From: Ascochyta rabiei | Taxonomy: Eukaryota; Ascomycota; Dothideomycetes; Pleosporales; Didymellaceae | Direction: 5' to 3' | NCBI RefSeq assembly: GCF_004011695.2 | Contig: NC_082405.1 | Span: 3,310,211-3,374,210, forward strand | DNA: 64,000 nt | Shown: positions 22,780 through 58,508 of the stretch, piece after piece | Layout: each line of letters opens with the position of its first letter | Numbering within the stretch: position 1 is the first letter of the stretch | Position numbers and translations under genes: made by a program | The notes under the pieces: model-generated | What the model was told of the DNA's origin: nothing | Database searches by the model: none | Seen by the model: the letters and a program-made list of their open reading frames with translations, nothing else

Positions 22780-25700
22780 ATGTCAGAAGCCACTGTTAAG
22801 CATCAGTACTTTAAGCACTTGGCTGAGTACCAGGTAGCAGTGTGTAAGGAGTGCCGGTACGCAGTATGGCTGGACCAGATTGAGAGCCACTTGCAGAAGC
22901 AACACAAGAGGCTGCTAAAGAATGTTAGAGCTGTAGGGGATGCCGTCCGTTAGTAGGCGGGCTTGCTACAGTACCCTAGCGAGTGGACAGTACCAGACAA
23001 CAACATGCAGCCTATCCCCCAGCTGCCAGTATACAACAACGGCTTACTATGCCAACTTAAGCCTAAAAAATACCAGCACATTGCAAGAACTGTTAACTTG
23101 ATTAAAAAGCACTAGCGCAAAGACCACAACGGCTGGTTGCTGGGAAAAAGGCAAGGACGTCCTAGCTGAACTTGGGCAGGGACGTTACAAGCCTAGATAG
23201 AAGACGGCTGCAAGCGCGTACACTGCTAGCGGCTTTTTAGCAGCTGGCACAGATTACAGTACTTTAAAGTGCGTCACACCCCAGACAGCGGCCCGCAGCC
23301 CATCCCCACGGAGGGCGAGGCAGCGTGGGCGCGCGTTGGCGAAGAGATGGCCAAGACGTAGGCCAACGTCAAGAACCGGGCAAAGACAACAATTAAAGAC
23401 AGGAAGAAGGACAAGGCAGCCCTATGGCTGGAGCGGACTGGGTGGCTGCCGTACTTGAACAAACTGGATTATCCTAAATTGCTGGCGAGCATCAAGGAGC
23501 CTAATATAGACCTAGAGAAAGATAAGGAGCCTGTTAAGGCTGCAATTTGGAGCGTAATAGATGGACTGGCCTACGTGAGCCAGACGTCTGTTATTAAGCA
23601 GACAGGCATATTTGTGCGCATAGAGGCCATTTGTACAAAGAAGCACCAGACTAGGTACACGCTGCTGCAGGCGTACATAGACAAGAAGTCGATCAAAGAG
23701 CAGTCACGCCTGTAGAAGCAGATACTAATGTTTTTTGCAAGGACGCAGAGGAAGCACTGTTGGAACAGCCCCAAGTACCGCTTCACACAGCAGCAGCGCG
23801 AGGCATGGGAGGCATTAATTGAGCAGGCAGAGAGAGACGTAGGCGGGGCAGAGATGGAGGTAGCGGACAAGGACCAGGATGAGGACGAGGAGGAAGAGGA
23901 GGAGGAGGACGAGATAATGATCGATGAACTCGACGACGAGCAGGACCCGTCCGAGTGCGACAACAAGCCCAAGAACAAGCCCAAGAACGAGCCTAAGCAC
24001 GCAAAGCTAACACTGATTAAGAAAGCGTGCTTAATGTTTTGCATTACGCTGCTTAACCAGCGCATCTGCTACAAGGAGTACAACTGCGCGTTAGTGTGTG
24101 CGTTAGCTGTGCTCGGCGTTAAAGAGGACGGCTGGAAGGACGCTGAGCTGTACCTGCCAATATTGTTATTAGTAATTAAAATTACCCGTTTCATAGTTGT
24201 ACAACACGCACTCGAGCTGTCTAAGCCGTTTAAAGAGGAGGTGTTTGACGACGACAGCGCGTACAGGGGGAGCGACAGCAGCAGCAGTAACCCTAGGCTG
24301 CGTTAACCAAAAGGCTGCTTGGAGTTTGTGCAGCAGATAATGGACAGGTTTATGGTACAAGGCAGCTACAGCCTAATGCAGTAGATGCTTGACTTACGTA
24401 CGTACAGGCTGAAGGTGCATTTTAACACTACTGCGCAAGGGAACGTTAAGTGGATAGGTAGGGACAAGCTGCTGTACAAGAACGTGCACTTTACTATAGC
24501 CCAGTTCCGCAGCATGGTGCACGGGATACAAGCAGAGAACAAGCAGATGCTGGTTAAGAAGCTGCTGTTTTGCAACGGGCAGACGGCAGATCAAGTCCCC
24601 CAGATTCCGTGGGAGCAGCTGCGCGACAACCCAACCAACAATCGACCTGGGTGGAACTTTTTAAAAGACCAGCGCACCCGCATGCCTGTGGACAGAGAGA
24701 GCTGGTTGTTTGAACAAGTAGGGCAAGACGCCACAATGCGGGAGCGGTTCATTAAGCCAGCCACCCGTTCCAGGATCGACAGGAACGAAGTGGAGCAGTA
24801 CATAGACTGTGTGGTTGCGTTTAGGGAGAAGCTGCTCGCGCTCATACACATGACGGCAGGACAACCCGCGCAGGCAACAGAGATATTGAGCGTCCAACAC
24901 AGCAACACGATCAAGGGCGGGCACCGTAACATATTCATTAAGGACGGCATAGTTGTTTTTGTTACGCAATACCACAAGGGGTACGCCGTCAGCAGCGACG
25001 TCAAGATCATCTATTGGTACTTGCCGCGTGAGGTGGGTGAGCTGCTGGTGTGGTACGTATGGTTGGTGTTGCCGTTCTAGCAGCAATTAGAGGCGATGGT
25101 GTGGGAGAAGGAGACGATGTCATCCCACTTGTGGCCCGCCGACCCGAACGGGCGCAAATGGACTTCAGAGCGTGTGCGGGAGACGTTGAAGCGCAAGAGC
25201 CGAATCGGGCTTAAACAAGAGTTAACAATTGCAGCGTACCGTGAGATCGCCATTGGCATTAGCTGGCGATTTTTGCGCGGCTCGACAGCGTTCGCCGCTA
25301 AGGAAGGCGAGGAAAACGAGGAGTGGAAGGAGAAGAACATGGCGGCCATTATTTAAGACAAGCAGTCCAGACACACGTCGCACGTAGCAGGTATGGTGTA
25401 CGCACGCGGCATCATAGAGATAGCAGGTGTCACAGCCAACAGAAGGCAGCTGTTCCGCAACTCGAGCACTGATTGGCACCGGTTTTTGGGTTTTTAGTCG
25501 GCCGTAGACGCATCAGCAGACGTGAAGAAGCGCAAGCAGGCGCCGTTCAAGAGCGAGGCCGACAAGGCGAGGATCGAGAGGCTGGAGCGGCTGAGGAAGA
25601 TGGACCCGGCAGCGCAACTCAAGCGAATGAAGGGCAAGAAAGCCAAGTTCAGAGGCGTGCAGAAGGAGGCCATCAAGGCGATCGTTGCTGGCGAGAGCCC

Positions 25701-28470: not shown

Positions 28471-31400
28471 ATGGATCAGGCCCGGCAAAACCACACGACA
28501 GCTCTGCAACAGCGCAGCAACAACAAACAACAACAACGCAGCTAACACAGTCGCAAAACCGGTGCGCAGGTATCGCTTAACAACTGCAACAATATTCTCT
28601 GCTTTTTAGAAGAATACGGCGTGTTGGTATGCAAAGACCACCAAACAGGCGTTGTTAATCTTAACACCCATCTCTTGCAGCACCACCACGTGCCTGCTGC
28701 AACTCGAAGAGAGATTGTTAAGCGCTTCCGTCACTACACGTTGACCGAACCTAACAACGTTGAACTTCTAGACGAGCCAGCAATGCCGATCGAAGAGCTT
28801 AGGGCGCCAGTAGACGCGCTGCAGTGCAGGACGTGTGCACTTGTTACTGTCAGCAAGGACAAACTCCGCCAGCACTGCAAAAAAGATCACCAGCAAGCTT
28901 GGACAGGAGAGAAAAGCTCGCTGTACAAGACTGTTAAAGTTCAGAGTTTTTTCCGCACAGCGGGGATGCAGAAATATTTCATCGTTAAAATAGATGATGT
29001 TGGGAATCCCGAAAACGCCAACGTTGAAGTTGCTGTTTAGGAAGAGCTGGCCGCGTACAGCTTGACACAACAACAGATTTAAGAAGAGCTGCAGATACTA
29101 GAAGCAGCAGCAAAGACTAACAAGACAGGCTGGTTTAAGCGCACAGGATGGTTGGAGTTCTTTAAGGGCCGAAATCTCAAGCATCTCGTCCACTAAGCCC
29201 GCGCGCCCGATCGCGGTAAAGACAAGATAAAGCTTGCCACCAAGCTGACAGAGCAACTGGTTGAGAGAAGCGTTAGGGGGCTGGCTACGCTTCCGCACAA
29301 GCTAAGGCGCTGGTTACGTAGTGCAAAACAGAGTAAGGCAGACACCCGGCCGCTGGCGCGACTGCAGAACCTGGAGAGTTAGGCTTGGTACGCAAGCTAC
29401 ATGGTGAAGTTTGTCTGCTTCTATCTGCAGGTGCTGGCCAACGAAGAGCAGCGGATCATCTGCGTAAGAGAAGGACGATTTGACTGTGACAGTAAAGAGA
29501 CGGCAAGCAGCGAGGAGGATAGCGAAGAGGGCGAGGAAAGCGAAGACAAGAGCGACGCCCCGCGGCCCCCCCGCAGGTCACGCAGACTGACGCCAACACG
29601 CGCAAAGGTATCGCAAGACAAAATAAAGGACGCTCGCGAGTTGTTCACGTGGACAGTTGAACAGAAGGCGTGTGCAATCAGGCTGTAGGATGCGCTTAAC
29701 GGCAGCAAGCGAGCAACGCAGATGGACGCACTTCTGAAGTCTATTGGCTCGTTCATCTTTACAAAGTATCACCCTAAGGCGCTGTCTACCAGCTTAATGC
29801 AGTTTCTTACTGTGCTTGGCATTAACCCAGACACAGGCTGCTTACGGACCGCAAAGCACTATTTGTACATGCTAGCAGGCATAGTGTACTGCGTGCGAGT
29901 AATTAGAGCTAAAAAGCTGCTTCCAGGCGGGCAGCGCAACACACAGACAGAGCAGGACCGCAATTGCTTTATTGAGATGCGGCACAAGTATCTGGCAGAC
30001 GGCACGTTTACTCCAATAAGCGCGATAATCAGCATGCTTGCGTACAGGAAGCACGTTGCGTTAATAGCCAGCAATTTAGGCAACGTATACTAGTCGGCAG
30101 ACAAGCAGATATTCTATCTAACTAGTTAGCGGATTAAGGTCAGCCGCTTCTGCAAGATGGCGCAGGACTTAGCAACAGAGACGTCTGAGATGCTGTAGGA
30201 GCTGTGCTAGGTGGACGACAAAGAAGAGCGCTTTGTGATTAATCTTAAGCAGGTTGTTAACAACGTTACGTTCACAAAGCAGGGCACGTCTTTCGTTAAC
30301 GTACCAAGCAACAAGCTAGAGAACAGGCTTGCTTAGATGCTGACGAGGGCGAGGACTACAAACGGCGGTCTGCGACTGAAGCGCGCTAACAGACAGTGGA
30401 GCGTTAAGGCAGTGCGGCGGTACATAAGGCAGATGGACTGCTTCTTAGAGCTGCTGCTGTGCAGCGTGCACGTCACGTCAGGGCAGCCAGGAAGGGGGTC
30501 AGAGATCACGACGATTTGACACCGCAACAGCATGCTGCAGGATCGCAATATCTTCGTCGCCGACGGGCAGATCATAACGGTGGTCTGCTATTACAAGTCG
30601 CAGTCGCAGTAGGACAAGCCAAAGATCGTGCCGCGCTTCTTGCTGCTGCAGCTTAGGCAGATTATAGCGCTCTACTTGGCGTATATACAGCCGTTCCGCA
30701 AGTATCTAACGCTGCAGGTGCTCGGCAGTAGCTACAGCAACTACGTCTGGCACAATGCACAGGGCGCGTGGAACACTGATTGACTAACGAGAGTTCTTAA
30801 GCAAGAAACACAGAAGAGACTGGGTGTTACGCTGCACACGCTTGACTACCGGCATACTGCCGTAGGACTTGGCCGAGTCTACGTTGGAGAGTCGTTCAGC
30901 AAGGGCTACCAGGACGACATTGGCGAAGTAGACGAGGCAGAAGTGGAAGACGACAGCAAGGATATTATTAAGCTGCAGAACTTACGCACAACTGCAATAG
31001 GCGTAGGTAACTACAGCGTGCCAATCAATATTGTTAAGCATCTCAGCGTGCGCTCGATCGACGCATTCCGGCCGCTCAGCGCAGCGTGGCACAAGTTTTT
31101 AGGTGTTGATGGCACAGGCAAGGTACGTCGAACAGCTGTTGCAAGCAGCACGCAGAGGAAAAGGCCAATGCAGGCAAGCATGTCTGGGCTGGCGCTGCTG
31201 CCGCGGGACAAGGAGGTGAGGGTAGAAGACCCGCGCAAAGACAAGATCCGTACAGCGCTGCAGCAGGTGCTAGGCACGCAGGAGGTAGGGTTCCGCTCGG
31301 TGGAGCAGGAGCAGGCGATGCATGCCGTTCTCGACGGACAGAATCCGCTGGTCGTCGTGCTCCCGACAGGAGGCGGCAAGAGTCTGCTGTTCACAGTGCT

Positions 31401-38525: not shown

Positions 38526-38557
<32 letters not shown>

Positions 38558-40838: not shown

Positions 40839-41120
40839 CTTCAAGAGGGTGAACAGTAATGGTCTTGCGGATTTCCTAGAGGTCCAAGCGTTCTGAACAA
40901 CAGGGGCATTACTGATTTCAAAATCTTAAAGAAATCAGTTAAGGTTACAGTGAGCGGCAACTTGACGCATAAAGCTGCCAGAGCCTAAACTGTGCCTGCA
41001 GATTTAATTAACATACTCAAATTTAGGGTGCTATGTTGCGTTTACGTAGAAACACTGTGCAACGTTGCTTGCGTAGTTTTGGTGAGGCAGTGGTTTGACC
41101 GTTATTGCACCGAACTAACG
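40835..41120. repeat. Repeat DR-left: copy of the P4/TLH4 intergenic sequence at the TLH3 break
   Basis: The first 26 bp (CTAACTTCAAGAG...ACAGTAAT) are identical to 43159-43184. Further homology lies at AAACACTGTGCAACGTTG followed by GCGTAGTTTTGGTGAGGCAG (about 41052-41090, versus 43246-43284). The left copy has about 150 bp that the right copy lacks. The two copies flank P4 in direct orientation. Confidence 0.85.
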
Positions 41121-41248
41121 TGAAACCAGAATACCTGCAACACGCAACACTACTATGAAAATGTAATACCTGCAGCAAGAATTTTTAATTACAAGAAGCC
41201 TACTAACACTACATGTCTGCACGGTAGGCACCCTACGCTGGAGGAACA

Positions 41249-43498: not shown

Positions 43499-46400
43499 AT
43501 GGATCAATTTAACACTATATTTGTGCATATCCCCAGCTGCCGCATTGTTGTTTGCAAAGAATGCGGCATAGGCGTCGTCAAGGCCTATGTAGCTACCTAC
43601 TTAAACAGCAAGCATGCGTATGTAACCGTAAGCACACGAACAGACATTGCCCAGGCTGTGTAGGCAATGAACGACTTGGCAGAAAACGAGGACGAAGTCG
43701 TGTATCCAGAGCCAGGATCCGATCCTATTCCCCATTTGAGGATATGGCAAGACAGTTTTAAGTGCGAAGCAAAGGAGAACGATACAACAGTATGCGGCTA
43801 CATCCGCCGGACCGTGCAAGACATGCAGCTACATTGCCGTAACAAACACAACTGGACAAACCTACAGAAGAGAGGGCGGACGTCTAAAGGGTCGCGCAGA
43901 GAGACTAACTGCATGTGGGTAGAGGGCGTATATTGCTAAAAGTTTACGCACGTAGGACAGTTAGGGCGTTTGTTTGAAGTCAGACGCCAGGACAGAGAGG
44001 ACACAAGAGGGGAAAGCGTGATCATCCAGCGGCAGTTGGAGGCAGTGTTCCAAGAGACCACCGCCGTGCTAGACAAGGTCGACAAGAACGCCAACGCCCG
44101 GATCAACCCAGACCACAACCGGCATGTCACACACGCATGGCTGAACCGGACTAGTTAGGCCTGTTATTTAGGCAGCTTAGACCGCGAATGGTTGCTAGCG
44201 TTAACCCAAAAACCCAAGAGGAACGAGAAGGCGTTGAGCAAAGTTTGTTAGGCGGTAAAGATAGTGATTTGGAAGGCCTAGCAGGCGTCACGTCCGAGCA
44301 TTGTTGGTTTCCCAGCAATGAACTATGTCAACCGCCGCGAGATAGGAAGCGAGACCAACAAGAAGCCGTTCAATGCACGCCAGACAGGCAAAACAATAAC
44401 CAAGTATGCCAGTTAGTGGTTGTCCTTTATCTGTTACATTTGGCGGACCTATAAGTTAGAGACTGTTGAAGCATAGGAAACAGAGGCGGATAAGGAAGAG
44501 GATAGGGGTGAGGGAGAGAATAGGGGTGAGGGAGAGAACAGGGAGGGTGGATTGAAGGGAGTTTAGGGATAGAGGCCGCCGTATCGATTGACAGCGAGCC
44601 AGATCTTGTGGCTGTGGAAGATCAAGCAAGTCGTAGGTGAGGACAAGGAAGAAGCCGAAGCTGAAGCCGAAAGCGAGCGCCAACCGACCAAAGGCGGAGA
44701 CAACAACTCAGAGAGTGAAGAGGAAATGGACGAAGAGGAGGAGGCATTGTTGGAGGGTTATGTGTTGGGGCTTTTGCTGTTGTTGTTGGACTATCATTTA
44801 AAGGACAACGAGTACAAGAGTGCGTTCGTTAGCGCTACAGCAGTCATGGGGATAGACAGCGATTGTGGGTGGAAGGACGTGTTAGCATACACGCCCATAA
44901 TTTCTGCTGTTGTTACTGTTGTAAGGATGTTGGTGTTGTACATGGCGGTGAAGACGCGTCAAGACCGCGTGGCCGAGCTGATAGAGAAGGAGGGATTCGC
45001 CCAGCAGGACGCTGAAGAGTTGGCTGTAAGCCATTTTGATTTGGTTTAGGAGAGCGCCAATCGTTTCATAACGCTGACTAGCTACGGCGGCACACCCAGC
45101 CCGATGGATTGGCTGTTATAATTGAGGACGTATGGCATAAAGATTTAGTTTAACACTAACGTGGACGGCGTAATTAAGTAGGTTAGGGACACATTGTTGT
45201 ACGGCCACATTTGGTTTATAATGCCTAGTTTGCGGTTAATAATCTACAGGTTGGTAGAGACGACACAGTTCAAATTGCAAAAGCAGTTGATGTTGCTAGA
45301 CATCAACGAGGATGGTTGGTTAGCGGAAGGGGCTACGCCGTTGCCAGCCATTGATTGGGACAACATTGTTGACAACCCAGCCGAGATAAAGGTTGGGTGG
45401 AATTTTTTCCAGGACAAGCGCAACACGTTCGGAGGCGTTAACAGGAAGAATTGGTTGGCTCATTGCGTGATCCACAAGAAGAGGTTACAAGAGGCATTTG
45501 TAGACGTTTAAGCCACCGATCCATCTGTACCTAAAGGACGCGGGGTAGTGTAGAGAGCGCAGGCGGTAAGAAAATACAAGAAGGCTATACAAGCGTTCTA
45601 AGAGCATTTGTTAGTCTTGGTGCACATGACCAGGGGGCAGCCAGCACGCGGAACAGAAGTGGTGACGGTCCAGCACATGAACAGTCTGAATGGCGAGAGC
45701 TGTGGTGTGTTTATTAAGGACGGGTTGATGGTGTATGTAACCATGTACCACAAAGGCATCAGGGCCAGCGCAAAGGCCAAGATCATCTACTGTTATTTAC
45801 CGCGTAAGGTAGGCAAATTGCTGTTTTATTATTTGTGGATGGTTATGCCGTTTTGGAGGAAGCTAGAGGGTGCTGTTGGGAGAGGGGCAGCTAAGGAAGC
45901 GAGCCCATTCATATGGGAGCCAAAGAAGAAGGAGCCGTAGGCACGGCCGCAACGTGGAAAAAGAGCACAGGAGAGCGACAAGGGTGAGGGTAGGAGGGAT
46001 GGTTGGCGACAGGGCGCGGACGAAGACGACGAAGAAGAGGAGGGACCGTCGTTGCGTGGACCCGAGCAATGGGATACCAACCGGGTTCGGCAGGCGATCC
46101 AGCGCGTATTAATACGGTGGTTAGGCGTAAAATTAAACATTATATTGTAGAGACACAGCACTAAGGCGATATATCGAAGATACATTAACAACAAAGCGGT
46201 GATCAAAGCGGTTGTGGAGGGTGACGAAGATGAGGACGAAGAGGACGAGGCGTTCGACATACAGACAGGGCACAGCTCCAAGATTGGCGGCACAGTTTAC
46301 GGGAGACCCATCACTAAGTCGCCGTTCAGTACCAAGGCCCAGCAAGTGGCATTGCAGCGAGTGAGCATAGAATGGCATCAGTTTTTGTTATTTAAGTCGG

Positions 46401-48373
46401 CGTTAGAGAAGCAGCCTAAGAAAGGAACGCGAGCGGCGGAGGTCAGGAAAGAGGCGATTAAGGAAGAATTTTGGCGTTAGAGGAAGATGCGTATGGTAGA
46501 CATCCAGTGTCAGTTAGAAGATTTGGTGCAGAAGGGGGCCAGGTTCAGGAGCGTGCAACGGCCGGCCATTGAAGCCATTATGCACTAGAAGAGTCCGATC
46601 GTTGTAGTTATAGGCACAGGAGCAGGCAAGAGCATGGCGTTTATGTTGCTGGTGTTGTGTTCCACCAGCGTTACGGTTGTTGTTGTGCCACTGGTTTCGT
46701 TGCGCGGCAACTTGAAAGACAGGTGCGTTTAAGCCGGAATCGAGTGTGTAGAGTAGGACAGTCAGAAACTGCAGGAATGGGCGTCAGTAGTGTTGGTCAC
46801 GCCCGAATCGGCGGTCAGCGAGAGTTTTGGGGGTTTCATTAACCGGCAACGAGCTATAGGGCGGTTGGACCAAATTGTTGTTAATGAATGTCACGTTGTG
46901 TTAGATTCAACAAGCGGATAGAGGACGTAGATGTTAGCGTTGCGGGACTTAGTAAAGGCAGAGACACAGCTGGTGTACTTGACAGCAACCATGCGGCCAA
47001 GAGACGAGGGCGAGTTTATTGCATTAATAGGGTTGCCAGCCAAGGAGCAATGCCAGTGGTTCTGGGGTCCAACGACCTGGAAGAACGTCAAGTACCAGAT
47101 ACAGCGGTACAATTAGAAGAAGGAAGACAAAGACAAGGTGTTGGTACAGTTAGTAGAGGAGAAGAAGCGGCAGTACCTGATGCCTGGCCAGATCATTGTG
47201 TACTGCGACACGGTGGCTAAGACGGTTCAATTGGCCAGGTTGTTGGGTTGTGTTTGTTACCACCGGCAGGTAGGGAGCAGAGGCGAGAAGGCAGAGTTGG
47301 TGCGCCAGTTGACAGAGGGACGACAGCAAGTTTTCACAGCAACTAATGCTTTAGGTTTAGGGGTAGATGCGCCCACCATCCGAGTAGTAATCCACATTGG
47401 GATTGTTAGAAAGTTGCGGGATTATGCGCAAGAAAGCGGGCGAGCAGGACAAGATAGGCAGAAGAGTGAAGCGATTATCGTAAGAGGGGAGAGGTACCGT
47501 CGAGATGGCAGCATGTAAGAAGGAAGTTGGGGTAGGGTAGATAAAGAGATGCAGGAGTTTATTACAACTAACGGATATATAAGAGTCGTGTTGGATAGGG
47601 AGATGGATGGGAGAATAGACAGAGTAGGTTGCGAAGTTAACAAAGAGAAATGTAGCGGGTGTGTTGGGTGTGAGACCGGGAGAGAGGCAGAGCGTGCAAG
47701 AGAAGACGAAAACAGGAGAGAAGACGAAGACAACGGGCAAGAGGCAGGAGGGATTAGGGATGAGGAAGAAAGGGTAGCGTTCGATCAGGAGGGAAGAGCA
47801 CGAAGGTTGGCGGCGCAAAGAGAGATGGAGTTACAGACCGAGGGTTTGGCAGAGATCTAAGGATTAGAAGAGGTGTTAGACGAGTGGAAGGAGGGATGCC
47901 AGCGATGCAGGGCGTGGGGAGAAGGGTGTAAAGGTCATAGGATGGCGGATTGCACGGCAACAGACGCAGAGGAGATTCGCAAAGGAGTAACAATTATTGC
48001 GAGTTCCATTTAGTAGGAGAGGTTTTTGTGTTATTTTAAGTGTAGCATCCTGCAGGCGATATGCAAAAGGTATAAGAGCCAAGCAGATGGCAGATAGATA
48101 AGGAAAGTCGGCGGAAGTTGTCAGTACTGTGGCGTGTTGATCGCGTCGATTGCGTCGATTTAGGCCAGGTGGTCAGATAGTTTCACGGAATGGGCGCAAG
48201 AGCGGATGGTGGAGGAGGGAGCACGATGGCAGGAGCAGGAAGAGCAGGGGGAGGCATTTAAGCGGATTGTTAAGTAGTTTAGGAAGAAGAAGCAGTAGGG
48301 CGGAATTAAAAGCAACAAGATGTGTTAGGTATTTTGGGCGTTTGCAGCATATTATTGTGAGATAGAAGAGTAG
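43499..48373 (+). pseudogene. TLH4: telomere-linked RecQ helicase, RIP-interrupted, full length
   Basis: A single frame of about 1,625 codons without frameshift. I prefer ATG 43499 (MDQFNTIF) over the in-frame 43475 because it aligns with the TLH5 start MELFAQLF. Zinc fingers: VVCKECGIGVV...SKH, then CEAKENDTTVCGYI...HCRNKH. Recombinase-like set: GQPARGTEV (Arg 45647), MYHKG, a stop where Trp is expected followed by RHSTKAI (Arg 46151), TGHSSKIGGTVYGR with His 46271 and Tyr 46298 nine apart. RecQ core: FRSVQRPAIEAI, IGTGAGKS, VVNECHVV (Asp changed to Asn), YLTATM, TNALGLGVD, YAQESGRAGQD, a partly lost zinc subdomain (GCEVNKEKCSGC) and a Cys-rich tail (CQRC, CQYCGVL). About 20 stops, mostly TAG. 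Closest to TLH5. Confidence 0.9.
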
Positions 48374-48414
48374 TATAGGAGAGTTTAGGGAATCTAATCA
48401 TATTATCCAATTGT
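48374..48414. other. Short spacer after TLH4
   Basis: Nothing recognisable; runs directly into MS4. Confidence 0.4.
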
Positions 48415-48790
48415 GGTAGCCCCCCAAAGCCTAAGCAGTATCCCAAGTGGTTCCCCAAGTGGTTCCCTAAGTGGTCCACAATTAGTGCGCTAAGCAATGC
48501 GCCACCCTGAGTAGTTCCCTAAGTAGTGCGCAAAGTAGTGCACCACCCCAAGTAGTCCAAAAGTGGTATCCACCCCAGGTGGTCCGAAAGTAGACCACCA
48601 ACCCAAGTGGTCCAAAAGTGGTCCCCCGCCTAACCAAGGAAGTCCACATTAGTAACCCCAAATTAGTAAGAGCCGATTATTTAAGAAAAGCCAACAGCCC
48701 AGAAAGAGCACGCAACCCAAGAAGAGCCCATGATCCAGGCAGAGCACCCGAAACCAAGTAAGTCCCTGACCTAAAGCACCTGTTTGTATT
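48415..48790. repeat. Minisatellite array MS4
   Basis: CCCAAGTGGTTCCC, GTAGTGCGC and AAAGTGGTCC units, then AGTAAGAGCCGATTATTTAAG and GAAGAGCCC units. It corresponds to the second half of MS5 (about 59060-59400) in the same order; the 18-bp units that open MS1 and MS5 are missing. Confidence 0.85.
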
Positions 48791-49020
48791 AAAAAGAAAG
48801 CGCAGAATCAAGACAACAAGAATTTGGGAAAAGAAAGATGCAGAGAAGAGGAGGAATTTGAAAAGGCCATTAGGGGGTTCAGGCAGATTGATTGGGATAG
48901 GGACAACATGTAAAAAGGTGTTTTGGGGGTTTGGAGAGTGTTGTCACAAGATAGAGCAGTAGTTAGGGAAGTTTAGCAAAACCGATTGTGGTGCCGCAGC
49001 CAGAAAGGCATTCCTGAACC
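48791..49020 (+). repeat. Relic of a TLH 3' end after MS4
   Basis: GGTGTTTTGGGGGTTTGGAGAGTGTTGTCACAAGATAGAGCAGTAG-like sequence at 48920-48970 is homologous to the last coding part of TLH4 (48325-48385) and to 59700-59760. It is followed by GATTGTGGTGCCGCAGCC and GAAAGGCATTCCTGAACC, also found at 59763-59802. Confidence 0.7.
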
Positions 49021-49295
49021 TGTAGATGTTGTAGTGCGTGAGAGAAGGGTGGGCGGTGGGCCCGTCAGGTGTCACAAAGCAGTCGAGCGGGGCGGTAGAG
49101 GGTGAAGGAGAAAGAGGGGAGGTAGGTGGGGCCGTAATAAGGTATCACGGGAGAGGGGGAGTAGAGGGGTGGGCGGGGGGCCCGTGGATGTGCCCCCAGA
49201 GCGGAGCGATTGAGAGTGAAGGAGGAGCAGGGTGAAGAAGAGAAAGTGGGTGGGCGGTAGGCTCGTTAAGTGTCACATAAGAGTGAAGGGGCAGT
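49021..49295. repeat. TAS block of the second module
   Basis: GGTGGGCCCGTCAGGTGTCAC and GGGGCCCGTGGATGTGCC modules, matching 59825-60050 in order and orientation. Open frames here are shadows of the repeat. Confidence 0.7.
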
Positions 49296-49620
49296 TATAA
49301 AGATAGATAAGCGGTACAGAGAGCGGGTTAATAGCAAATTTTTTTTAGCAACGCAATAGTAGTAGCAATTAGAGAAGTGTTGTTCATGCAGCAGTATAAC
49401 AGCGCGCAGGTAGCGGAGATAGAATCGGGTTAGCGTTGAGGCTGAATTAAGGTTGCGCATTTTTGGAGATGCTCGGCTGACTCGCATGCAAGAGCATCAC
49501 GCAAAAATCAAGGAAGTTAAAATTAATAAACAGTAACACAAACAGTGCAAACGTGCGGAGGGGAAGACTAAACAGACGTTTAGCTGTAAGATAGCAGTAA
49601 GCAGGTTAACGTTAAGGCAG
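49296..49620 (+). repeat. TAS repeat r3, fossil TLH 3' end
   Basis: Third copy of the r repeat (see 33361); begins AAGATAGATAAGCGG and ends AGTAAGCAGGTTAACG. Confidence 0.75.
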
Positions 49621-50835
49621 AAATAAAATAAAATATTAGAGTTAGGTTCGGGCTGGTACGCAAGTCAGAGTAGGGTTAGGGTTGCCGGTGTTTGGGGCAA
49701 GCAGACAGAGGAACAGAGGCCCGTAGAAAGACACGCAACAGGTAGAGAACAGCCGCAATCCGTAAAAAGACCCGTAATATAAGCGTAAGAGAGAGAAGAG
49801 GGGTAGGCAGAGGGTCCGTGGGAATGCACAATAAGCGCAGCGGTTAAGAAAGGAGAAGAGGTAGGCGACACAGCTGTGATGAGGTATCATTGAGAGGTTA
49901 ACATAGCAAAGCAGTAGAGAGGTAAGCCGTGATAATGTGTTACAAGGACGCCGAGCGCAGTGGTCGGCAATAGCACAGAAGAAGAAGAGGCCCCTGTAAC
50001 CCGTGCGTTAGTGATGCGTAACAGGGGTGTAGCAGATACCCGTCCGAGAGTGCAGCAAGCGTCAAGGGAAGCGTGGTTAAGACCGTTAGAGAAAGGCGAA
50101 AGGGTGGAGAGGGGGGGAAGGCGGGCAGTTAAGGAGCATGACCTGTGACTAGTAAGAGACAACAGCAAACAGCCCGTAAAAGGCCCCGTAACCCGCAAGA
50201 AGGTTAACAGAGCAAGCAGATCAGTTGTCAAAAGCAGAAGAGCACAGCATTAAACCGTGGAAATGATTGAGACAGCGTTTAGGGGAGAAGAACCGATAGG
50301 GGGCCCGTAAGGCGTCACAAGAGAGTAAGCGTAACAAAGACGTCAGATAAGTGAAGTTGGGTTCGGGACCAGACACAGGTCGAGGTTAGGGTTAGGGTTA
50401 CCCGTATTTGCAGGCCGGCAACCAGTAGAGGGTATGACGGAAACCTGTCTGAGAGTGCACAGGGCATATTGAGCGGTAGAGAGACGCGCCCGTAAACCGA
50501 AAAGGCCGTGACGCGCAAGAGAGGGGTGGGCGGAGGGCCCGTGGATGTGCCCCCGAACCCGTAGAAAGACAGGTAACAGGCAGGAAACAGCCGCAACCCG
50601 AGAACAGACCCGTAATTTGAGCGTAAGAGAGAGAAGGGGTAGGCAGTAGGCAGTAGGCGCGTCAGGTGTTACAGAGAAGCCGAACGCAGCAGTTAAAGAG
50701 AGAGAAGTAAGCGCACAAAAGACGTGTTAGAGTATCAGGACGGAGAGGATGAACGGGTAGATAGTAGGGTAGAATAGATAACAGCACGTAAGAAAATGCG
50801 GAGGCGTTATACAGTTTCCATTAGACCGTTAGCCG
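49621..50835. repeat. TAS with interstitial TTAGGG and long repeat R, copy 2
   Basis: TAGGGTTAGGGTTGCC at 49671-49686 in the usual module. From about 49826 the sequence is homologous to 35885-36925, including GGTTAGGGTTAGGGTTACCC at 50384-50403 and the AGCACGTAAGAAAATGCGG end near 50782-50800. No gene. Confidence 0.85.
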
Positions 50836-51552
50836 TTAGGGCAATTCGTAACAAAGAATTAGAAAGAGAAGAGAAATAAAAAAATTAAAAGTAGTGTAAA
50901 GATTGTTTAGTGGTGTAAAGAGGAGGCGGAGGCGGAGGCGGAAAAGATCAATAGGAGAAGGGTTGTAGTAAAGGGGAAGAAGTTTAGTAGTAAAGAAGGA
51001 ATAAAGAAAAAAGAAATAAAAATAAAAATAAAAAAAGAAAGTAGTTAAGAAACAAGAGAGAAGAAAAAGAATTAGTCGAGGAGAAAGTGACAGTAACAGT
51101 TAGGGTTTTAGTGTGAGAAGAGAGTTTGAGTCTGGAAAAAAAGGTCAGAAGAGTAAAATTTAAAGTTTTAAGAGAAGAAGTGAAAGAAAGAGTAGTAGTT
51201 TAAAGGAAGATTGTTGAAAAGTAGAGAAGATTAGGAGTAGTAGAATAAGGAAAGGAAAGGATAAAAGAAGTAGAAAGGATAAAAGAAGTAGAAAGGATAA
51301 AAGAAGTAGAAAGGATAAAAGAAGTAGAAAGGATAAAAGAAGAAGAAAGGATAGAGAGAAGTAGTGAGGATTAGAGAATAGATGTTAAGAGTAGAAGAGT
51401 AGAGGGAAGAAAAAGATAAGAGAAGAAGAAGTAGGAGCGAGTAGGGTAAAGAGAAGAATAAAGTAAGGAAAATAGCAGAGTAAGGAAGAAGAAGAGGGTA
51501 AGTGTAAGGGTTAGGGTTTTAGAGTAAGAAGAGGGTTAGGGTTTTAGGGTTA
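50836..51552. repeat. Internal purine-rich block, homologous to the telomere-adjacent tract
   Basis: A/G-rich and very C-poor on the plus strand. 51090-51552 aligns with about 61700-62125 in the terminal C-free tract. It contains five 18-bp units AAAGGATAAAAGAAGTAG at about 51256-51345 and three TTAGGGTTTTAG motifs (51110, 51508, 51529). It looks like the former end-proximal block of an older chromosome end. Confidence 0.85.
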
Positions 51553-51880
51553 GAAGAGAGTCTCCCAGTGATTATACGAACAAAGACAGTGTATTTGTTC
51601 GCTTTGCCTATGTAAATTTTAGCGTGAGCACAGACACTCGACTGTATTTGTTCGCTTTTTCAGCGTGAATTTGTTCGCTGTTCCTGAAGTCAAATATTGC
51701 TGCAACGATTGCGGAACGTGTACAAAGTGCGTCCCAATTGTATGTTGAATTTCTAGAAGAATCGAGCATACGGTACGTAAGTGGAATATAGTAGATGTTT
51801 CAATATTAATGTTCGCGATGTTGTAGGGCAGTATCGATAAGGTATGTAGCACAATGTTCAGAGTTAAGCGCAGGTAACAT
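51553..51880. other. Junction between the two telomeric modules
   Basis: The purine block ends sharply at about 51552. Three ATTTGTTCGCT words (51593, 51645, 51668) and one inverted copy (ACGAACAAA, 51577) lie within 100 bp. The rest is probably the 3' flank of P5. No gene is supported. Confidence 0.5.
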
Positions 51881-53713
51881 CTACTCTACAGGATGGAACA
51901 ATTCAAGCAAAGTTAGCTGACGCAACCGCGGAGCTGGCGTAGGACTCTTCGGCGAAGCATGACTTTGCTCTCTGGTGCTGTCGTCAACGCTGTTGTCAGT
52001 TTCGTCGTCTTCGCTGTCTTGAATCTCTTCCACCTCGTAGATGGTTGCTGGCGCCTCCGCCTCAATGCTCAGCGTTTTCTTCTTGTTGATGGGCCCGCCA
52101 GCAATTCCCTCTGGCCCTAACCAGTTCTCAAGTGCCTTGCTAGCTGCACAAATGTCTGGACACTCCTTCTTAAGTAGCTCAATCCAGACATGCAGCTGGC
52201 CTACACGGAGGGTGCGTTCTATCCAGCAATTCGCAATCTCGTCGTGTGGTATCAGGGTCAGAATGCCCCAGCCTAGCTCCTGACTAATGGAGTACCAGCG
52301 CATGGCTTGGCCTAACCGTCGTCTAAACACCTGCTTGTCCTTCTCAGTGGCGTTGGGACTAACTAACTCTACTAGCGCTGCAACTGCCTCTGTGCGGATC
52401 TGTCCCTTTCCGTATCGATTTCGCGTCCTGTCGTTGCTAGATACAAAGTTGTTATGCCGGATCTGCGCTATCTTGTTGGAGTATGCTTGACCTAGGAGAG
52501 CTGACGCCCATCGAGACTCAATATGGACAGCTGCTAGCTCTGCTTCGTAACGTGTGCACATGTTCCAGGCAAAGCAGAAATCCCTGTCAGCATCGTTGCG
52601 CACACTCAGCAGCTGCAAGCGCTTAGCTCCCGCACCGGTCCTGCTCTGGCTGCCAGCGAGCTCGCCGCCACCTCTGAAGGGTGAGCCACGTTCTCGCCAA
52701 GCCTGCAGGAACTGGGCAGCGTGGTACCGAGAGGACTGGTTTCCAAGCACGCGCGCTTTCTCTAGAAGGGTGCAGGCCGTGAGGTAGGGAGTTTGGGTGG
52801 AGCTGTAGAAGTCCGTGTCATCAGAGACCGGCTGCTTAATAATCCAGGCGACGACGGACTCGTCCTTTTGCACAATAGAGGTGTAGGCAGCCTGCTCTGG
52901 AAGAGGAGCCTTGTCGCCAGGTGCTACCAGACCAAGGGCAAGCCGCTTCTTCGCACGCGAAGTGGCGAGTGTCCTGCTGCGTTTTTGCTCCGCACGGCGG
53001 TTGTTGTTGGAGATGGTAGTGATGTGCAGAGGGGAGTCTTTCAGCTGCTCATCCGGTTCGCTAGGCTGTGACAGCTGAGGGCTGGCTGGATGTGTCTCAT
53101 CGGTGGTTGTTCGAGCGCGCTTTGGTGTAGGGGCCGGCGCAGATAGGTGTGGCCGCTTCTTTTGTTGCGGGGGTGGAGCGGAGGCCTGTTGTGAAGGGGA
53201 AGCAAAGGGCTTCTGCGCAGACGGCGGCTCTTCCATCCCGTCCTCCGCAAGCGACTCGGCCGCGCAGACCAGACGATCCCAGATATTGTCAGGCAGGACG
53301 TCGTCGGCGAGCGTCTCGCGCAGAAGCCAGATCGCTGACAAGACGGAGTGGGCAATGAAGACGGGCTTGCAGACGCTGGCATCGTCACGGGTGGGGATCA
53401 GCCATCCTGCGCTGTGCGGACGAGCACCTGGATCACGCTGCGAGCGTGAGATGGTCGCTCGGCAGAAGAAGAGCTTCTCGTAGTCCTCATTCGGCGGCTC
53501 GTACGCGTAGTTGCGAACGAAGTCAGCTTCGCTGGCCAGAGGAAAGCTCCGACGACCGCTATCAAACCGCTCTGCGGCGCTGTCTAATGCTGCCAACCAG
53601 TGCATTATCGACTTGTGTACTGCGAATAAGGTTGCGAGCGGAAGTTCGGACGAAGGTTGTGCGGAAAGGGGGTTGGGTGTTGTTGAGGTTCTGACGCGGT
53701 CACACCGCGGCAC
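51881..53713 (-). CDS. P5: intact divergent partner gene of TLH5, unknown function
   Basis: An uninterrupted minus-strand reading frame of 610 codons from 53713. Homology with P4 and P1 begins only at Met37 (53605, MHWLAALDSAAERFDSG), so 53605 (574 residues) is the more likely start. Parts: N-terminal conserved region (SFPLASE, PNEDYEKLF, HSAGWLIP, CKPVFIAHSVLSAIWLLRETL), a Pro/Ser/Gln-rich linker with KKRP and PKRAR basic clusters that could be a nuclear signal, a second conserved region with RRAEQKRSR, YTSIVQKDE, RWASALLGQAY and GKGQIRTEAVAALVEL, an acidic segment (EEIQDSEDDETD), and C-terminal QLTLLELFHP (from Gln599), which resembles a PCNA-interacting peptide. No signal peptide or membrane segment. 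I do not recognise the family. It is the only member without RIP stops, so it may be the recent or active copy. Confidence 0.85.
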   Translation of the reverse strand: MPRCDRVRTSTTPNPLSAQPSSELPLATLFAVHKSIMHWLAALDSAAERFDSGRRSFPLASEADFVRNYAYEPPNEDYEKLFFCRATISRSQRDPGARPHSAGWLIPTRDDASVCKPVFIAHSVLSAIWLLRETLADDVLPDNIWDRLVCAAESLAEDGMEEPPSAQKPFASPSQQASAPPPQQKKRPHLSAPAPTPKRARTTTDETHPASPQLSQPSEPDEQLKDSPLHITTISNNNRRAEQKRSRTLATSRAKKRLALGLVAPGDKAPLPEQAAYTSIVQKDESVVAWIIKQPVSDDTDFYSSTQTPYLTACTLLEKARVLGNQSSRYHAAQFLQAWRERGSPFRGGGELAGSQSRTGAGAKRLQLLSVRNDADRDFCFAWNMCTRYEAELAAVHIESRWASALLGQAYSNKIAQIRHNNFVSSNDRTRNRYGKGQIRTEAVAALVELVSPNATEKDKQVFRRRLGQAMRWYSISQELGWGILTLIPHDEIANCWIERTLRVGQLHVWIELLKKECPDICAASKALENWLGPEGIAGGPINKKKTLSIEAEAPATIYEVEEIQDSEDDETDNSVDDSTREQSHASPKSPTPAPRLRQLTLLELFHPVE

Positions 53714-53902
53714 TGAAAGTCAGGCCGCGCACGGATGTACCACGACGCCCTCACCAACCAGCGTTAGCGGAGCTGGGAGCGCAATTAAACCAAAAGCAAG
53801 ATTGATACACAGTCTGTCGATTAATATGCTAGGGGATAGCAAACACTAGGCTAACGGACGTGTTGCATAGCGCCCACTTGTGTCCCTTCTGCTCCTTACA
53901 CC
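53714..53902. promoter_or_regulatory. Divergent intergenic region P5/TLH5
   Basis: 189 bp (297 bp if P5 starts at 53605) between head-to-head starts. AAAGTCAGGCCGCGC at 53716-53730 is shared with the P4/TLH4 region (14 of 15). The sequence ATTAATATGC near 53820 is the only AT-rich stretch. Closely spaced divergent starts imply shared control. Confidence 0.55.
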
Positions 53903-56900
53903 ATGGAACTATTTGCGCAGCTGTTTGAACACTGGCCTGAACTTCGAGTCGTAGTTTGTAAACTATGTGCCACCGCTATTCCACCAGCGCAGATCGTTAC
54001 GCACCTCAAAGAGCGCCATCCCAAGGTCACAGTCGCTACGCGCAAGAGCCTGGCGGCAGCTGTACGCGCGCTACCAAACCTTGCGTGGAGTCCAGGAGAC
54101 GTGCGTGTACCAAGGCCGGCTAAGGAGCCCGTCTTTGGTCTGAAAAGCCGAGAAGACGGGCTGGTATGCTTGTCGGAGCGTTGTTGGTATACCTGCATCT
54201 CGCTGCAGGGCATGCAGAAACATTGCAAGGATGAGCATGGCTGGGTGAACGAACAAAAGCGAGGGGAGATATGAGGCAAAAGAGCAAGCACTCGCGCAAC
54301 CAAGTAGGGCGAGACAGCCAATCCTGCCAGCGCTTGTTCAGAGCTGTTGGCTGGCCGGCGTATGTTGCAGTCGAGACGAGCGTTGGAGCTGCGACTCTAG
54401 CAGACATCTCCCAGAGAGTGAAGGCAGATCGCCAGCATCAGCGAGAAGAGCGTGAGGCAGCAGCAGCGCAGGATAAGATTAAAGAGGGCATCCGTTCGCA
54501 GGCTGATCCGTGGCTAGAGCTCACAGAATGGGTCCCGCACCTACAAGGTATCCCAAGGGCGGCACTTCTGCGCGCTAAACAGCTAGCTGGTGGGGAGGTA
54601 GACGCGCGTGGGAAGGAAGAAGTGGCGTTTGACGACACGGGCTTACGCGATGTTTGCAAAGCTATAGAGCGGCTGATACGAAAAGCGTTCGATAGCAGCC
54701 GAGCTGAGGTTGTCGGCAGACTCGCACTGGAGATTATTGAGCGACGTGAGGCGGGCGCAGAATCGAACGAGCGGCCCTTCTACGCTAGGCATCGAGTCGG
54801 TACGATCAAGAAGTACAGCCAGAAGCTGGTGAGCATCCTCTGCTACCTGTGGCGCACATATGACCAGGTCGAGCGGCCGCCATACAAACTTACCAGCACG
54901 CAAGACGCCCTCTTGGTGTCACTCCAGCAAATAGCCCGCTCAGACGACGCTGCGAAGAAAGAGAAACTGGAAGAGCGATGCCTGCGCTTTTGGATCGCCT
55001 TGCTCAACCACAGCCTGACTGGCGACGAGCACGAGAGCGCACTGCTGAGCGGAGTGGCTGTCCTCGGCCTCAAGCCTGATCACCATGGCGGTGGGTGGGT
55101 TCCGGCGCACGAGTTCTCGCCAACGCTGTCTGCTTTGATCACTACCTCGAAAGCGCTCGTAGTGCATCATGCCCGCTGCCAGCGAGATAAAGCGCTTCAG
55201 AAAGACCCTGTACAGCACCTACTGCGTATAAGCTAGTTAAAGACATGTCTGAACGGTTTATGACGCTGTCCGACTTCAAAGGCACACCCAGTCCTATGAA
55301 TCGAATGCTCCGCTTGCGTACGCTAGCTAGAACACAGGCAAAGCGACGTAATACTCCCGGTATCGTGTCGTGGGATGGAGATCGGCTTCTCATTGACAAG
55401 CAGAGCTTTTCGCTAGCCGATCTCCGGTCGATGGTGAAGGGACTCTGCGAGACGGTGCGGTTGCAGCTATTCAAGGACGTCCTACTCTTGGATCTAGACG
55501 AAAGGGGTTGCGTGCGACCCGGGACCACCCGCTTCCAGAGGTGTCCGTGGACAAACTCGTCGATCAGCCAGCCGAGCTGGCTACGGGCTGGAGCTTTCTG
55601 AAGCACCCGACAACCAGCTAGATAGATGGCAAGACTGGCTTCTAGACCGGGTGTTGGACGAGGCTCCGCTAAGGGAGAGATTCATTCGTGGGATAGATAG
55701 CACACAACGGCCGGAACGGACGCTATGGCGCGATGACGCTGTAGCTAGGTACATGAAAGGAGTGCGTCGGTTTAAAGAAGGCCTCTTCACGCTTGTTCAC
55801 ATGTCTGGCGGCGGGCCTGGTCGCGGGACAGAGATTACCTCGATACAGTGCGAGAACAGTGCAGACGGGGTGGGGTATCGGGGGTGTTTGTAGAGGGTGG
55901 CCTGGTATCCTTCACCACTACGTACCACAAGGGGTATAGCTTCAGCAAGCGTGTCAAGACGATCCACCGCTATGTTCCCTGGGAGGTGGGTGAGCTGGTG
56001 GTGTACTTCCTCGGGCTCGGTCGACCGTTCATAGATGATCTCCAGATGCTGCACAATGGCGTTGCCCGCCCTACCGCTTTCATCTGGGAGCCAGAGCCGG
56101 AGGAGCAGTGGGGCGACGAGAGCGATAGCGAAGAGAGCGACGACGGAGACGAGTACGGCGAAGCCGACCGTGAGAAGGCACGATCCGCTAACCCAGACGG
56201 GTACTGGGGCACCGATCGCATACGCCGTGTCCTGCGCGAGCAGACCTTTCAGTACATGAACACCGCTCTCGGCACCCGCGCCTGGCGGCATGCCTACCCA
56301 GCCATCCACCAAGAGCTGGCAAGAGATGGACAAGCACGCGACTGGTTGGAAGTGCTCTACTGGAACAAAGCGCCGGCGAAGAGCAACGCGCAAGCGTTGC
56401 AGTCCGGCCACAGCCTTGAAACAGAGGAGGGCAACTACGGCCGCTCCATGATGGAGTCTCCCTTTCAGACCATGGCCGAGCGGGAGGAGTTCCGGCGGGT
56501 GAGCATGGACTGGCATCGCGTGCTGGAGTTTGCATCCGCCTGGGAGGACGGCCGCATGCACCCCGGTGTTCGCGCGGAGATGGTAGCGCAGCAAGAGAAG
56601 CAGGCGCTCCAGCGCTGGTCGTCGCTCGCGATGGTGGACCTCAAGGCAGAGTTCAGGCGACTCGCTGGACGGCCGGACGCCGAGTATCGTGGCAAGCAAG
56701 AAGAAAGCCTCAAGGCTGTGATGCAGCGACGGCTGCGCGTGCTAGTTGTTATGGCTACCGGCACCGGCAAGAGTATGCTGTTCATGCTGCCCGCGTCCGT
56801 CTCGCCAGGCGGCGTCTCCGTGGTCGTGGCTCCGTTGAATGCCTTGCGAGACGATCTGCAAGATCGCTGCGACCAGCTCGGCATCCCCTGCGCGAAGTGG

Positions 56901-58508
56901 GATGGAAGAAGACCGCCGTACTGGGCTCGTATTGTGCTAGTGACGCCTGAGAGCGCAGTCACAAAGGCGTTCGGCAGGTTCATTGACGAAAAGCGCATGC
57001 TCCATCAGCTAGATCGTATCGTGATAGACGAGTGCCACGTGCTGCTGGAGTCGACACAGGACTGGCGGCCAGACCTCCTCAAGATGGTGGAGATGACGGA
57101 GAAGGGCACACAGGTTGTCTACCTGACTGCAACCTTGCCGCCCACGCTGCAGCCCGCCTTCTTGCACACCGCAGGGCTCGATGCCCAGACCGTAACCATA
57201 TGCCGCGATGAACGCACCACGCGAACGAACATTGCGTACCAGGTGCTAGAGTACACACGTGGCACGCTAGAAAAAGTACTTATTAAGCTCGTGGCTGCGA
57301 AGAGGAGTAGGTACGGACCTAAGGCGCAGATCATCGTCTATTGTCCAACTGTGGACGAGACGAAACGGCTTGCGAAGCTTCTGCAGTGCTCTGCATACTA
57401 CCGTCAGATGGGCTCAGACGAGGAAAAGGCACGCATGGTGCGAAGCTTCACCCTGGGCATAGAGAAGCTTTGTACAGCCACGAACATGCTGGGTCTTAGG
57501 CTCGACGCTGCAGGCGTCCGGGTGGTGATCCACGTTGCCATGTGTCCCCTGCTGCTCCAATATGTGCAAGAGAGCGGCCGGGCGGGACGAACGGGGCTTA
57601 ACAGCGAGTCTATTGTTATGAGAGCGTGCTATGTAACGAAAGAGGGGAGGGTAGAGAAGGCGCTCGGCTACAAGCTGGAGCGACCTGCAAAGGAGTTTAT
57701 GACAGTCGAATCCTGTCGGCGAATCGCGATAGACAAGCACATGGACGGCAGACAGAACAGGCAGCAATGCGAGATAGGAGAGTCGAAGTGTGATCTATGC
57801 GAGCGACACCCCGGTAGTACCAAGCAACAAGCCGTCGAAGAAGAGCAGGAAGAGCCAGAGGAGACGCAGGCCGACACCGCAGCGGTGGCAGCAGAGGAGC
57901 AGCGCAGATGTATAGAGCGAGCTATAGTTGTTAAAGAGCGGAGGGTTGAGATCCAGCAACAGCGAAGGACGGAACAAAAAGTATATGACCTGGAGCGGCT
58001 AGAGCAGCACTTCCAGCGCTGGAGCAATGCGTGCGCCATCTGCATGGCCACTCAGGCTGACCCGGCGCGCCACGACTGAAAGGACTGTTCAAAGGCCAGC
58101 GGAGCGCAGATGACATTAATGGAGTCTAAGGTGAAATCTATGCACCAAGTGAAGTGGGAGAAGTATGCGCAGTGTTTTTACTGCTGGGCGCCCCAAGCCA
58201 TCTGCAACAAGTGGGAGGAAACAAGCATACAGGGTGCGTTTAAGACACAAGGGATGCATGTGCCTTGCCAGTACGATGGAGTGCTCCAGAGAGCAGTAGC
58301 TGCGCTGCTTGCCTGCCAGCCACTGATGTGCACGCCATGGCTGGAGCAGCAGATGCAAGACGCCGCGATTGTGCACGGTAGCGATGAGCTCCGGCTTTAC
58401 AAGTGGCTCGGATTGAAGATCAAGATGGGCCAGAGAGACGCGAGCCAGATGTGTCGTTTCCTATATGCTTGGGAGGAGGGGCATGTGCAGTCGTATTTAG
58501 CAGACTAG
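53903..58508 (+). CDS. TLH5: least-damaged telomere-linked RecQ helicase (recombinase-like domain + RecQ), several frame changes
   Basis: Starts at MELFAQLF. Zinc fingers: VVCKLCATAIPPAQIVTHLKERH and WYTCISLQGMQKHCKDEH. Reading passes through four or five frame changes (near 54270, 55210, 55540, 55622, 55875), then is open from 55848 to a TGA at 58077, after which the same frame continues to 58508. Recombinase-like set: GGGPGRGTEI (Arg 55822), TTYHKG, RAWRHAYPAI (Arg 56286), SGHSLETEEGNYGR with His 56409 and Tyr 56436 nine apart; an acidic insert lies between the Lys and the second Arg. RecQ core: YRGKQEESLKAV, MATGTGKS, VIDECHVL intact, YLTATLPP, altered motif V (LGLRLD), YVQESGRAGR. Zinc subdomain: CRR...C...CDLC. 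C-terminal Cys-rich region: CAIC, CFYCWAPQAIC. Unlike TLH1-TLH4 it has hardly any TAG stops. The changes may be true indels or sequencing errors, since at least one lies in G runs; I saw no convincing introns. Confidence 0.88.
55801..56440 (+). other. Tyrosine-recombinase-like catalytic region within TLH5
   Basis: Spans the candidate Arg (55822, in G-x-P-x-R-x-x-E-I), Lys (about 55929, in YHKG), Arg (56286, in [YW]-R-H), His (56409, in GHS) and Tyr (56436, in YGR). The same order is present in TLH1-TLH4 with H-to-Y spacing of nine in every copy (Arg replaces His in TLH2). The usual box II His three residues before the second Arg is not conserved. Assignment rests on motif order and spacing only. 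Confidence 0.6.

What the first reader, a model, noticed from the sequence alone, without database searches (positions are those of the whole stretch)
22780..58508. TLH helicases carry a tyrosine-recombinase-like catalytic constellation between the zinc fingers and the RecQ core
Seen: in five TLH copies the same residues recur in order: Arg in G-x-P-x-R-x-x-E, Lys in Y-x-K, [YW]-R-[HE]-x-A, then G-H-x8-Y-[GA]-R. The H-to-Y distance is nine in all five (TLH2 has Arg for His). The Arg-to-Arg distance is about 120-123 codons in TLH1, TLH2 and TLH3. Known: tyrosine recombinases use R-K-HxxR-H/W-Y with H/W-to-Y of nine in Cre (W315/Y324), lambda Int (H333/Y342) and XerD (H270/Y279), and 119 between the Arg residues in Cre. 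Inference: TLH is, or descends from, a recombinase-helicase fusion, which would make these genes mobile or end-recombining elements, not simple helicases. The second Arg to H distance (40-45) is longer than usual and the box II His is not conserved.
Basis: partly seen in the sequence, partly recalled or inferred. Interest (0 to 1): 0.88.

Follow-up and report, generated by a model that had tools for sequence, protein, structure and literature searches.

The report
Recombinase domain inside telomere-linked helicases
The helicase genes that sit at the chromosome ends of this fungus also encode a domain predicted to fold like Cre/Xer DNA recombinases, and they lie in a 12.4-kb element whose inner end is joined at the same base to many different flanks, so they look like mobile chromosome caps and not plain helicases.

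Summary

Beyond the finding: TLH, a divergent partner gene and a telomere-side tract form one element of near-constant length. Its inner end starts at the same position in 30 of 30 loci examined, joined to 27 different flanks, including the inside of an older TLH gene and a nearly eroded telomere. Two older families also have sharp inner ends. Best reading: a recombinase-helicase fusion that joins a telomere-bearing element to chromosome ends. Fold is predicted, junctions are seen, catalysis is inferred. My paper searches found no such report.

The parts
51562..64000 (+). Terminal element (unit 5): fixed inner end, partner gene, TLH5, tract, telomere; about 12.4 kb
   Evidence: Inner-end sequence found 37x genome-wide (up to 3 mismatches), reversed control 0; 28 of 37 lie 12,380-12,460 bases from a contig end, all 37 in the same orientation towards the end; same start position in 30 of 30 loci
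51562..51681 (+). Inner 120 bases of the element with four copies of TTTGTTCG (one inverted: 51577-51584; direct: 51594, 51647, 51670); candidate recombinase-binding site
   Evidence: Four copies reached in 5 of 5000 dinucleotide shuffles; an 8-bp inverted repeat alone in 196 of 5000
51884..53719 (-). Partner gene (612 codons open), head-to-head with TLH5; precomputed Pfam PF28402, function unknown
   Evidence: no match in the local Pfam copy; 72 matches in the genome, some of them pieces; 114 relatives
53918..54241 (+). OrsD (PF12013) zinc-finger region of TLH5
   Evidence: hmmscan E 3.1e-22; genome search
55690..56513 (+). Tyrosine-recombinase/TopIB-fold catalytic domain of TLH5 (split over two frames in this copy)
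   Evidence: HMM matches E 8.9e-27 and 3.1e-99; fold predicted from sister copy L025
55822..55824 (+). TLH5 Arg I codon (box I, G-P-G-R-G-T-E)
   Evidence: 203/204 relatives
55929..55931 (+). TLH5 Lys codon (Y-H-K-G, turn between strands 2 and 3)
   Evidence: 202/205; DSSP
56286..56288 (+). TLH5 Arg II codon (W-R-H)
   Evidence: 193/197
56409..56411 (+). TLH5 His codon (S-G-H-S)
   Evidence: 193/195
56436..56438 (+). TLH5 Tyr codon, presumed nucleophile (N-Y-G-R)
   Evidence: 195/196
56697..57596 (+). RecQ-type helicase core of TLH5 (DEAD and Helicase_C)
   Evidence: hmmscan E 2.9e-18 and 5.2e-10
45536..46375 (+). Recombinase-fold domain of TLH4; R, K, R, H, Y all present
   Evidence: E 1.1e-81
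40834..51561 (+). Older element (unit 4) with its own sharp inner end at about 40834, joined inside the TLH3 helicase frame
   Evidence: 5 near-full other copies start at query 434-436 and a sixth, partial one at 436; one partial match starts at 462
39438..40142 (+). Recombinase-fold domain of TLH3 (gene cut off at about 40833)
30382..31089 (+). Recombinase-fold domain of TLH2 (His replaced by Arg)
24763..25476 (+). Recombinase-fold domain of TLH1 (Arg I replaced by Gln)
20391..20391 (+). Sharp inner end of the unit 1 element family (position good to a few bases)
   Evidence: 8 other copies at 92-95% identity start at query 586-593 (7 of them 591-593)
60310..63900 (+). Telomere-side tract of the element, no C on this strand
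   Evidence: tract found at most chromosome ends

Best explanation
TLH proteins are three-part enzymes: OrsD-type zinc fingers, a tyrosine-recombinase/TopIB-fold DNA breaking-rejoining domain with an R-K-R-H-Y set, and a RecQ-type helicase. They are encoded by a two-gene, chromosome-terminal DNA element (partner gene and TLH head to head, then a telomere-side tract and the telomere). The most likely mechanism is that the recombinase domain recognises the element's inner end (repeats of TTTGTTCG lie within its first 120 bases), cleaves there through the conserved Tyr, and joins the element, which already carries a telomere, to an eroded or broken chromosome end, while the RecQ motor opens or resects DNA. 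Repeated rounds would stack elements in one orientation, the older ones decaying inwards. Shown by computation: domain fold (predicted model), residue conservation, near-constant length, fixed inner end, varied flanks. Inferred: cleavage at that end, role of the helicase and of the partner, end-capping as the outcome.
For: Fold. Conservation. Same inner start position in 30 of 30 loci (the best 30 of the 72 partner matches) with 27 distinct flanks. 37 inner ends genome-wide, 28 within 12,380-12,460 bases of a contig end. Sharp ends in two older families. Flanks include the inside of a TLH helicase frame (L039 against window 25088-26265; TLH3 cut at 40833) and, on C2 left, an older terminal tract that runs about 10 bases into its telomere repeat before the new element starts. 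12 of 30 flanks are C-poor, tract-like DNA (14 or fewer C in the last 300 bases). Partner and TLH relatives sit on contigs of the same length in other samples (11 contig lengths under 20 kb shared between the tables; indirect).
Against: No catalysis shown. Foldseek alone gives no match at E<=0.001; hhalign against a six-member YR profile fails (probability 0.1); Pfam and PHROGs do not see the domain; a PDB sequence search shows only helicases in the 60 rows shown of 309. The His-Tyr part of the model is its weakest (pLDDT about 46-60). The box II His is not conserved. No flank consensus was found. Some matches in the older families start further in. No empty site or new insertion was seen. Many copies in this genome carry stops or frame changes, TLH5 here included.
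Confidence: 0.6

Rival explanations
1. The domain has the recombinase fold but works as a type IB topoisomerase: it relieves strain for the RecQ motor at chromosome ends, and the elements spread by ordinary break-induced replication.
Confidence: 0.15
2. TLH elements spread like yeast Y' elements, by homologous recombination between chromosome ends; the recombinase domain is a relic.
For: Outer parts of terminal copies are 97-100% identical in 32 places and 98-100% in 31 places, which suggests homogenisation; three loci share one junction and two share another.
Against: 27 distinct flanks joined at the same position is not expected from homology-driven exchange with varied breakpoints. Catalytic residues stay near-invariant in 208 relatives, not expected of a relic.
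Confidence: 0.15
3. The fixed inner end is made by another enzyme (for example the partner, PF28402) and joined by end-joining; the recombinase domain resolves telomere or fork structures as hairpin telomere resolvases do.
Against: The partner has no recognisable nuclease or recombinase match, though its fold was not predicted; TelK is the weakest superfamily row.
Confidence: 0.1

Closest known systems
Telomere-linked helicases (Magnaporthe TLH, Ustilago UTAS, Metarhizium RecQ, Colletotrichum DHX repeats)
   Same: Subtelomeric RecQ-like helicases; DUF3505/OrsD domain in Colletotrichum and Ustilago; one orientation relative to the telomere in Colletotrichum (PMC5576322, PMC10532341, PMC11893274, passages read)
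   Different: Those passages name no recombinase domain, and PMC11893274 calls the function unclear; here a recombinase-fold domain and a fixed inner end are added
Xer, XerH and Cre tyrosine recombinases
   Different: No box II His; Arg II to His mostly 41-46 against 23 in XerD and Cre; fused to RecQ and zinc fingers; long variable, acidic insert before Arg II
Type IB topoisomerases
   Different: Rank below recombinases; R-x-x-E box I; here in an element with a fixed end
Starship captains (DUF3435) and Cryptons
   Same: Fungal mobile elements run by a tyrosine recombinase (PMC12134995, passages read)
   Different: No DUF3435 match to six TLH proteins at E<=10; TLH elements are chromosome-terminal, with one fixed end and the telomere at the other; helicase fused
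Drosophila HeT-A/TART telomere elements (recalled)
   Same: Stacked in one orientation on chromosome ends, joined by a fixed end to eroded DNA
   Different: Those are retroelements; no reverse transcriptase among the Pfam matches of the TLH and partner proteins tested
Helitron RepHel (recalled)
   Same: DNA-breaking nuclease fused to a helicase
   Different: HUH nuclease plus Pif1 there; recombinase fold plus RecQ here

Membership tests
Tyrosine recombinase / TopIB superfamily | Catalytic fold | tested here: met
Tyrosine recombinase / TopIB superfamily | Arg I, Lys, Arg II, Tyr conserved | tested here: met
   203/204, 202/205, 193/197, 195/196
Tyrosine recombinase / TopIB superfamily | His or Trp nine residues before Tyr | tested here: met
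   191 of 191 at distance 9; His 193/195
Tyrosine recombinase (named families) | His of H-x-x-R in box II | tested here: not met
   Position -3 is mostly Ser, Arg, Ala or Lys; hence filed at superfamily level only
Tyrosine recombinase (named families) | Match to Phage_integrase (PF00589) or a related profile | tested here: not met
   No match for six proteins at E<=10 in Pfam; PF00589 absent from the genome at E<=0.001; hhalign probability 0.1
Tyrosine recombinase / TopIB superfamily | Covalent 3'-phosphotyrosine cleavage and strand joining | not testable with these tools
   Needs biochemistry
Starship captain (DUF3435) | PF11917 match | tested here: not met
   No match for six proteins at E<=10; DUF3435 relics sit elsewhere in the genome
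RecQ helicase | DEAD and Helicase_C core with RecQ relatives | tested here: met
   best PDB sequence matches are RECQ1, RECQ5 and BLM
RecQ helicase | RQC and HRDC domains | tested here: not met
   None listed for six proteins at E<=10; PMC5576322 reports zinc-binding and RQC domains not detectable in Colletotrichum (passage)
Type IB topoisomerase | R-K-R-H-Y with poxvirus-like spacing | tested here: inconclusive
   Spacing agrees but the fold ranks below recombinases
Crypton | Crypton-type recombinase and ends | not tested
   No Crypton profile was run

The most novel reading that the evidence does not exclude
TLH elements are a new class of mobile DNA: self-contained chromosome caps whose recombinase-RecQ fusion protein cuts the element at a fixed inner end and joins it, with its telomere, to any eroded or broken end. 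Subtelomeres of many ascomycetes would then be stacks of such events, a DNA-based counterpart of the fly telomere retroelements and a telomerase-independent way to heal ends.
Probability: 0.4. Interest if true: 0.96.

Novelty: new variant of a known kind. Interest (0 to 1): 0.88.

Why it matters
Telomere-linked helicases are described in several fungi and their role is called unclear (PMC11893274, passage read). A predicted recombinase-fold domain with an R-K-R-H-Y active site, in elements with a fixed end, turns that question into a direct biochemical test: does the domain cleave and join the element's inner end? If it does, fungi have a DNA-recombinase route for capping chromosome ends, and a fused recombinase-RecQ helicase is an enzyme design I know no precedent for (recalled).

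Tried and rejected
Sequence-only remote homology: hhalign of the TLH domain against a small profile of XerC, XerD, lambda Int, FimB, FimE and Cre gave probability 0.1. Pfam at E<=10, PHROGs at E<=1 and a PDB profile search (60 of 309 rows shown) saw no recombinase, mainly helicase and OrsD parts. I did not take this as refutation, because the fold match is clear, but it is told.

Introns: I first read TLH5 as several exons; sister copies show one long frame (C20 right 1117 codons to its first stop; C5 left 1359 codons open), so the frame changes in this copy are damage.

Partner gene: no function found. A phage search found one chance match (E 5); a PDB profile search gave cytochrome subunits at E 0.02, taken as chance.

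Target consensus: the base before the junction is C 10, T 8, A 6, G 6 of 30; no target motif seen. Inner-end inverted repeats of the two older families are weak (65 and 109 of 5000 shuffles). No shared 9-mer among the three inner ends.

Not in print, as far as searched: 'tyrosine recombinase + RecQ + telomer + fung' (5 papers), 'telomere-linked helicase + recombinase' (1 paper), 'subtelomeric + RecQ helicase + transposable element + tyrosine recombinase' (none), 'Crypton + tyrosine recombinase + helicase + fung' (18 papers). Of the papers found I saw only the listings; by title and start of abstract none is on this. The library lacks most subscription papers and preprints; Rehmeyer 2009 on a TLH-specific motif was seen only as a reference title.

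Full report
What the window is. The window ends in a TTAGGG array and is the right end of contig C1 (3310211-3374210) of a 40.9-Mb, 23-contig genome. A relative whose longest contig has exactly the length of C21 (1223078) is recorded as Ascochyta rabiei EKO05_0010850, so the organism is very probably A. rabiei.

The observation. An HMM of the domain finds five copies in the window. Lys, second Arg and Tyr are present in 5 of 5, box I Arg in 4 of 5 (TLH1 has Gln), His in 4 of 5 (TLH2 has Arg), and the His-Tyr step is 9 in all. TLH5 in this window is broken over several frames. Sister copies have longer single frames.

Conservation. A protein search with the middle domain gave 88 relatives. A second search from a distant Colletotrichum member gave 374, of which 120 were listed, 119 of them new. 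I used all 207 listed proteins plus one copy of this genome: 208 sequences, some of them partial, none dropped. R 203/204, E 200/202, K 202/205, second R 193/197, H 193/195 and Y 195/196 of the rows that have a letter there. Of 191 other proteins with all five columns, H-Y is 9 in 191, R-K is 35 or 36 in 189, and R-H is 35-55, mostly 41-46. In 30 own-genome copies: R 25 and Cys 5, E 30, K 30, R 28 and Gln 2, H 29 and Tyr 1, Y 30.

Recombinase or topoisomerase. The box II His of recombinases is absent: Ser, Arg, Ala or Lys in most rows. In type IB topoisomerases this place is Lys and the later position His (PMC2747268, passages), and the poxvirus enzyme has R130, K167, R223, H265 and Y274 in its pocket (PMC9919579, passages). 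The spacing here (35-36; 41-46; 9) is nearer to that (37; 42; 9) than to Cre (28; 23; 9). The fold ranking favours recombinases. I therefore file the domain in the superfamily and leave the reaction open.

The element. The inner-end sequence occurs 37 times in the genome and its reversed control 0 times. 32 copies lie 10.4-12.5 kb from a contig end, 28 of them at 12,380-12,460; five others lie at 29-45 kb; all 37 point the same way. In all 30 loci that I held (L031-L060, the best 30 of 72 partner matches) the element begins at the same position; the first nine bases are identical in 27 and differ by one base in 3, and in C2 left the first base is T and could belong to the telomere repeat before it. 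These 30 have 27 distinct junctions. One flank lies inside a TLH helicase frame (L039). On C2 left the flank is an older telomere-side tract that runs about 10 bases into its telomere repeat before the new element begins. 12 of 30 flanks are C-poor like that tract. Two further families show sharp inner ends. Unit 4 starts at about 40834 in 5 near-full copies and one partial copy, with one further partial match starting 26 bases further in; it cuts TLH3 short. Unit 1 starts at about 20391 in 8 other copies at 92-95% identity, while more distant relatives (89% and less) match only from further in. The outer kilobase is 98-100% identical in 31 full-length places; in 29 of them it stops 51-112 bases from the contig end (C13 right stops 751 bases away, C4 right could not be measured); the distances are my subtraction from the table.

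Mechanism. A fixed inner base with varied flanks means that the element has a defined DNA end. The resident protein carries a predicted DNA breaking-rejoining fold with conserved active-site residues, and the first 120 bases hold four copies of an 8-base word (5 of 5000 shuffles reach this). The simplest account is that TLH cuts there and joins the telomere-bearing element to eroded ends. Which strand is cut, how the acceptor end is chosen, whether copies are made by replication, and what the helicase and partner do are not shown.

Literature. TLH function is called unclear (PMC11893274, passages). DUF3505 and helicase repeats at all 24 subtelomeres are described in Colletotrichum higginsianum (PMC5576322, passages), and UTAS elements in Ustilago (PMC10532341, passages). 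None of the passages read mentions a recombinase domain in them, and 'recombinase' does not occur in the main text of the last two. My searches found no paper that reports one.

Noticed in passing
window 60310-64000: 3691 consecutive bases without a single C on the + strand, ending in the telomere; shorter C-free stretches (51147-51437, 51477-51561) mark the outer end of the older unit inside.
   Followed up: partly
window 51884-53719 (-), 41258-42958 (-), 20787-22547 (-): Partner gene family (precomputed Pfam PF28402), divergent from the neighbouring TLH, 114 relatives in the database, no function or fold found.
   Followed up: partly
genome-wide: All 99 listed OrsD (PF12013) matches of the genome lie within 41.2 kb of a contig end (the end of C4 was taken from a match).
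   Followed up: yes
C5:2388111-2389991, C14:5918-8134, C20:5912-7282: Aggressiveness-linked SNPs in PMC11893274 (ctg05_2388561, ctg14_6054, ctg20_6490) fall inside terminal TLH copies if contig numbering is the same; with some 30 near-identical copies, short-read calls there may be mis-mapped.
   Followed up: no
protein P0077 (Aspergillus thermomutatus, 1498 aa): OrsD protein with recombinase-domain matches at residues 492-693 and 1168-1446 and no helicase match.
   Followed up: no
C9:455600-456910, C7:1598685-1600008 and others: DUF3435 (Starship captain type) matches, most with stops inside, away from the chromosome ends; no PF00589 match in the genome.
   Followed up: no
window 1-20000: AT-rich stretch (GC 0.32-0.39) just inward of the TLH array, unlike the 44-59% GC of 20-60 kb; looks like repeat-induced point mutation (cause inferred).
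   Followed up: no
window 40834 and 20391: The inner ends of two different element families both begin TCTAAC.
   Followed up: no
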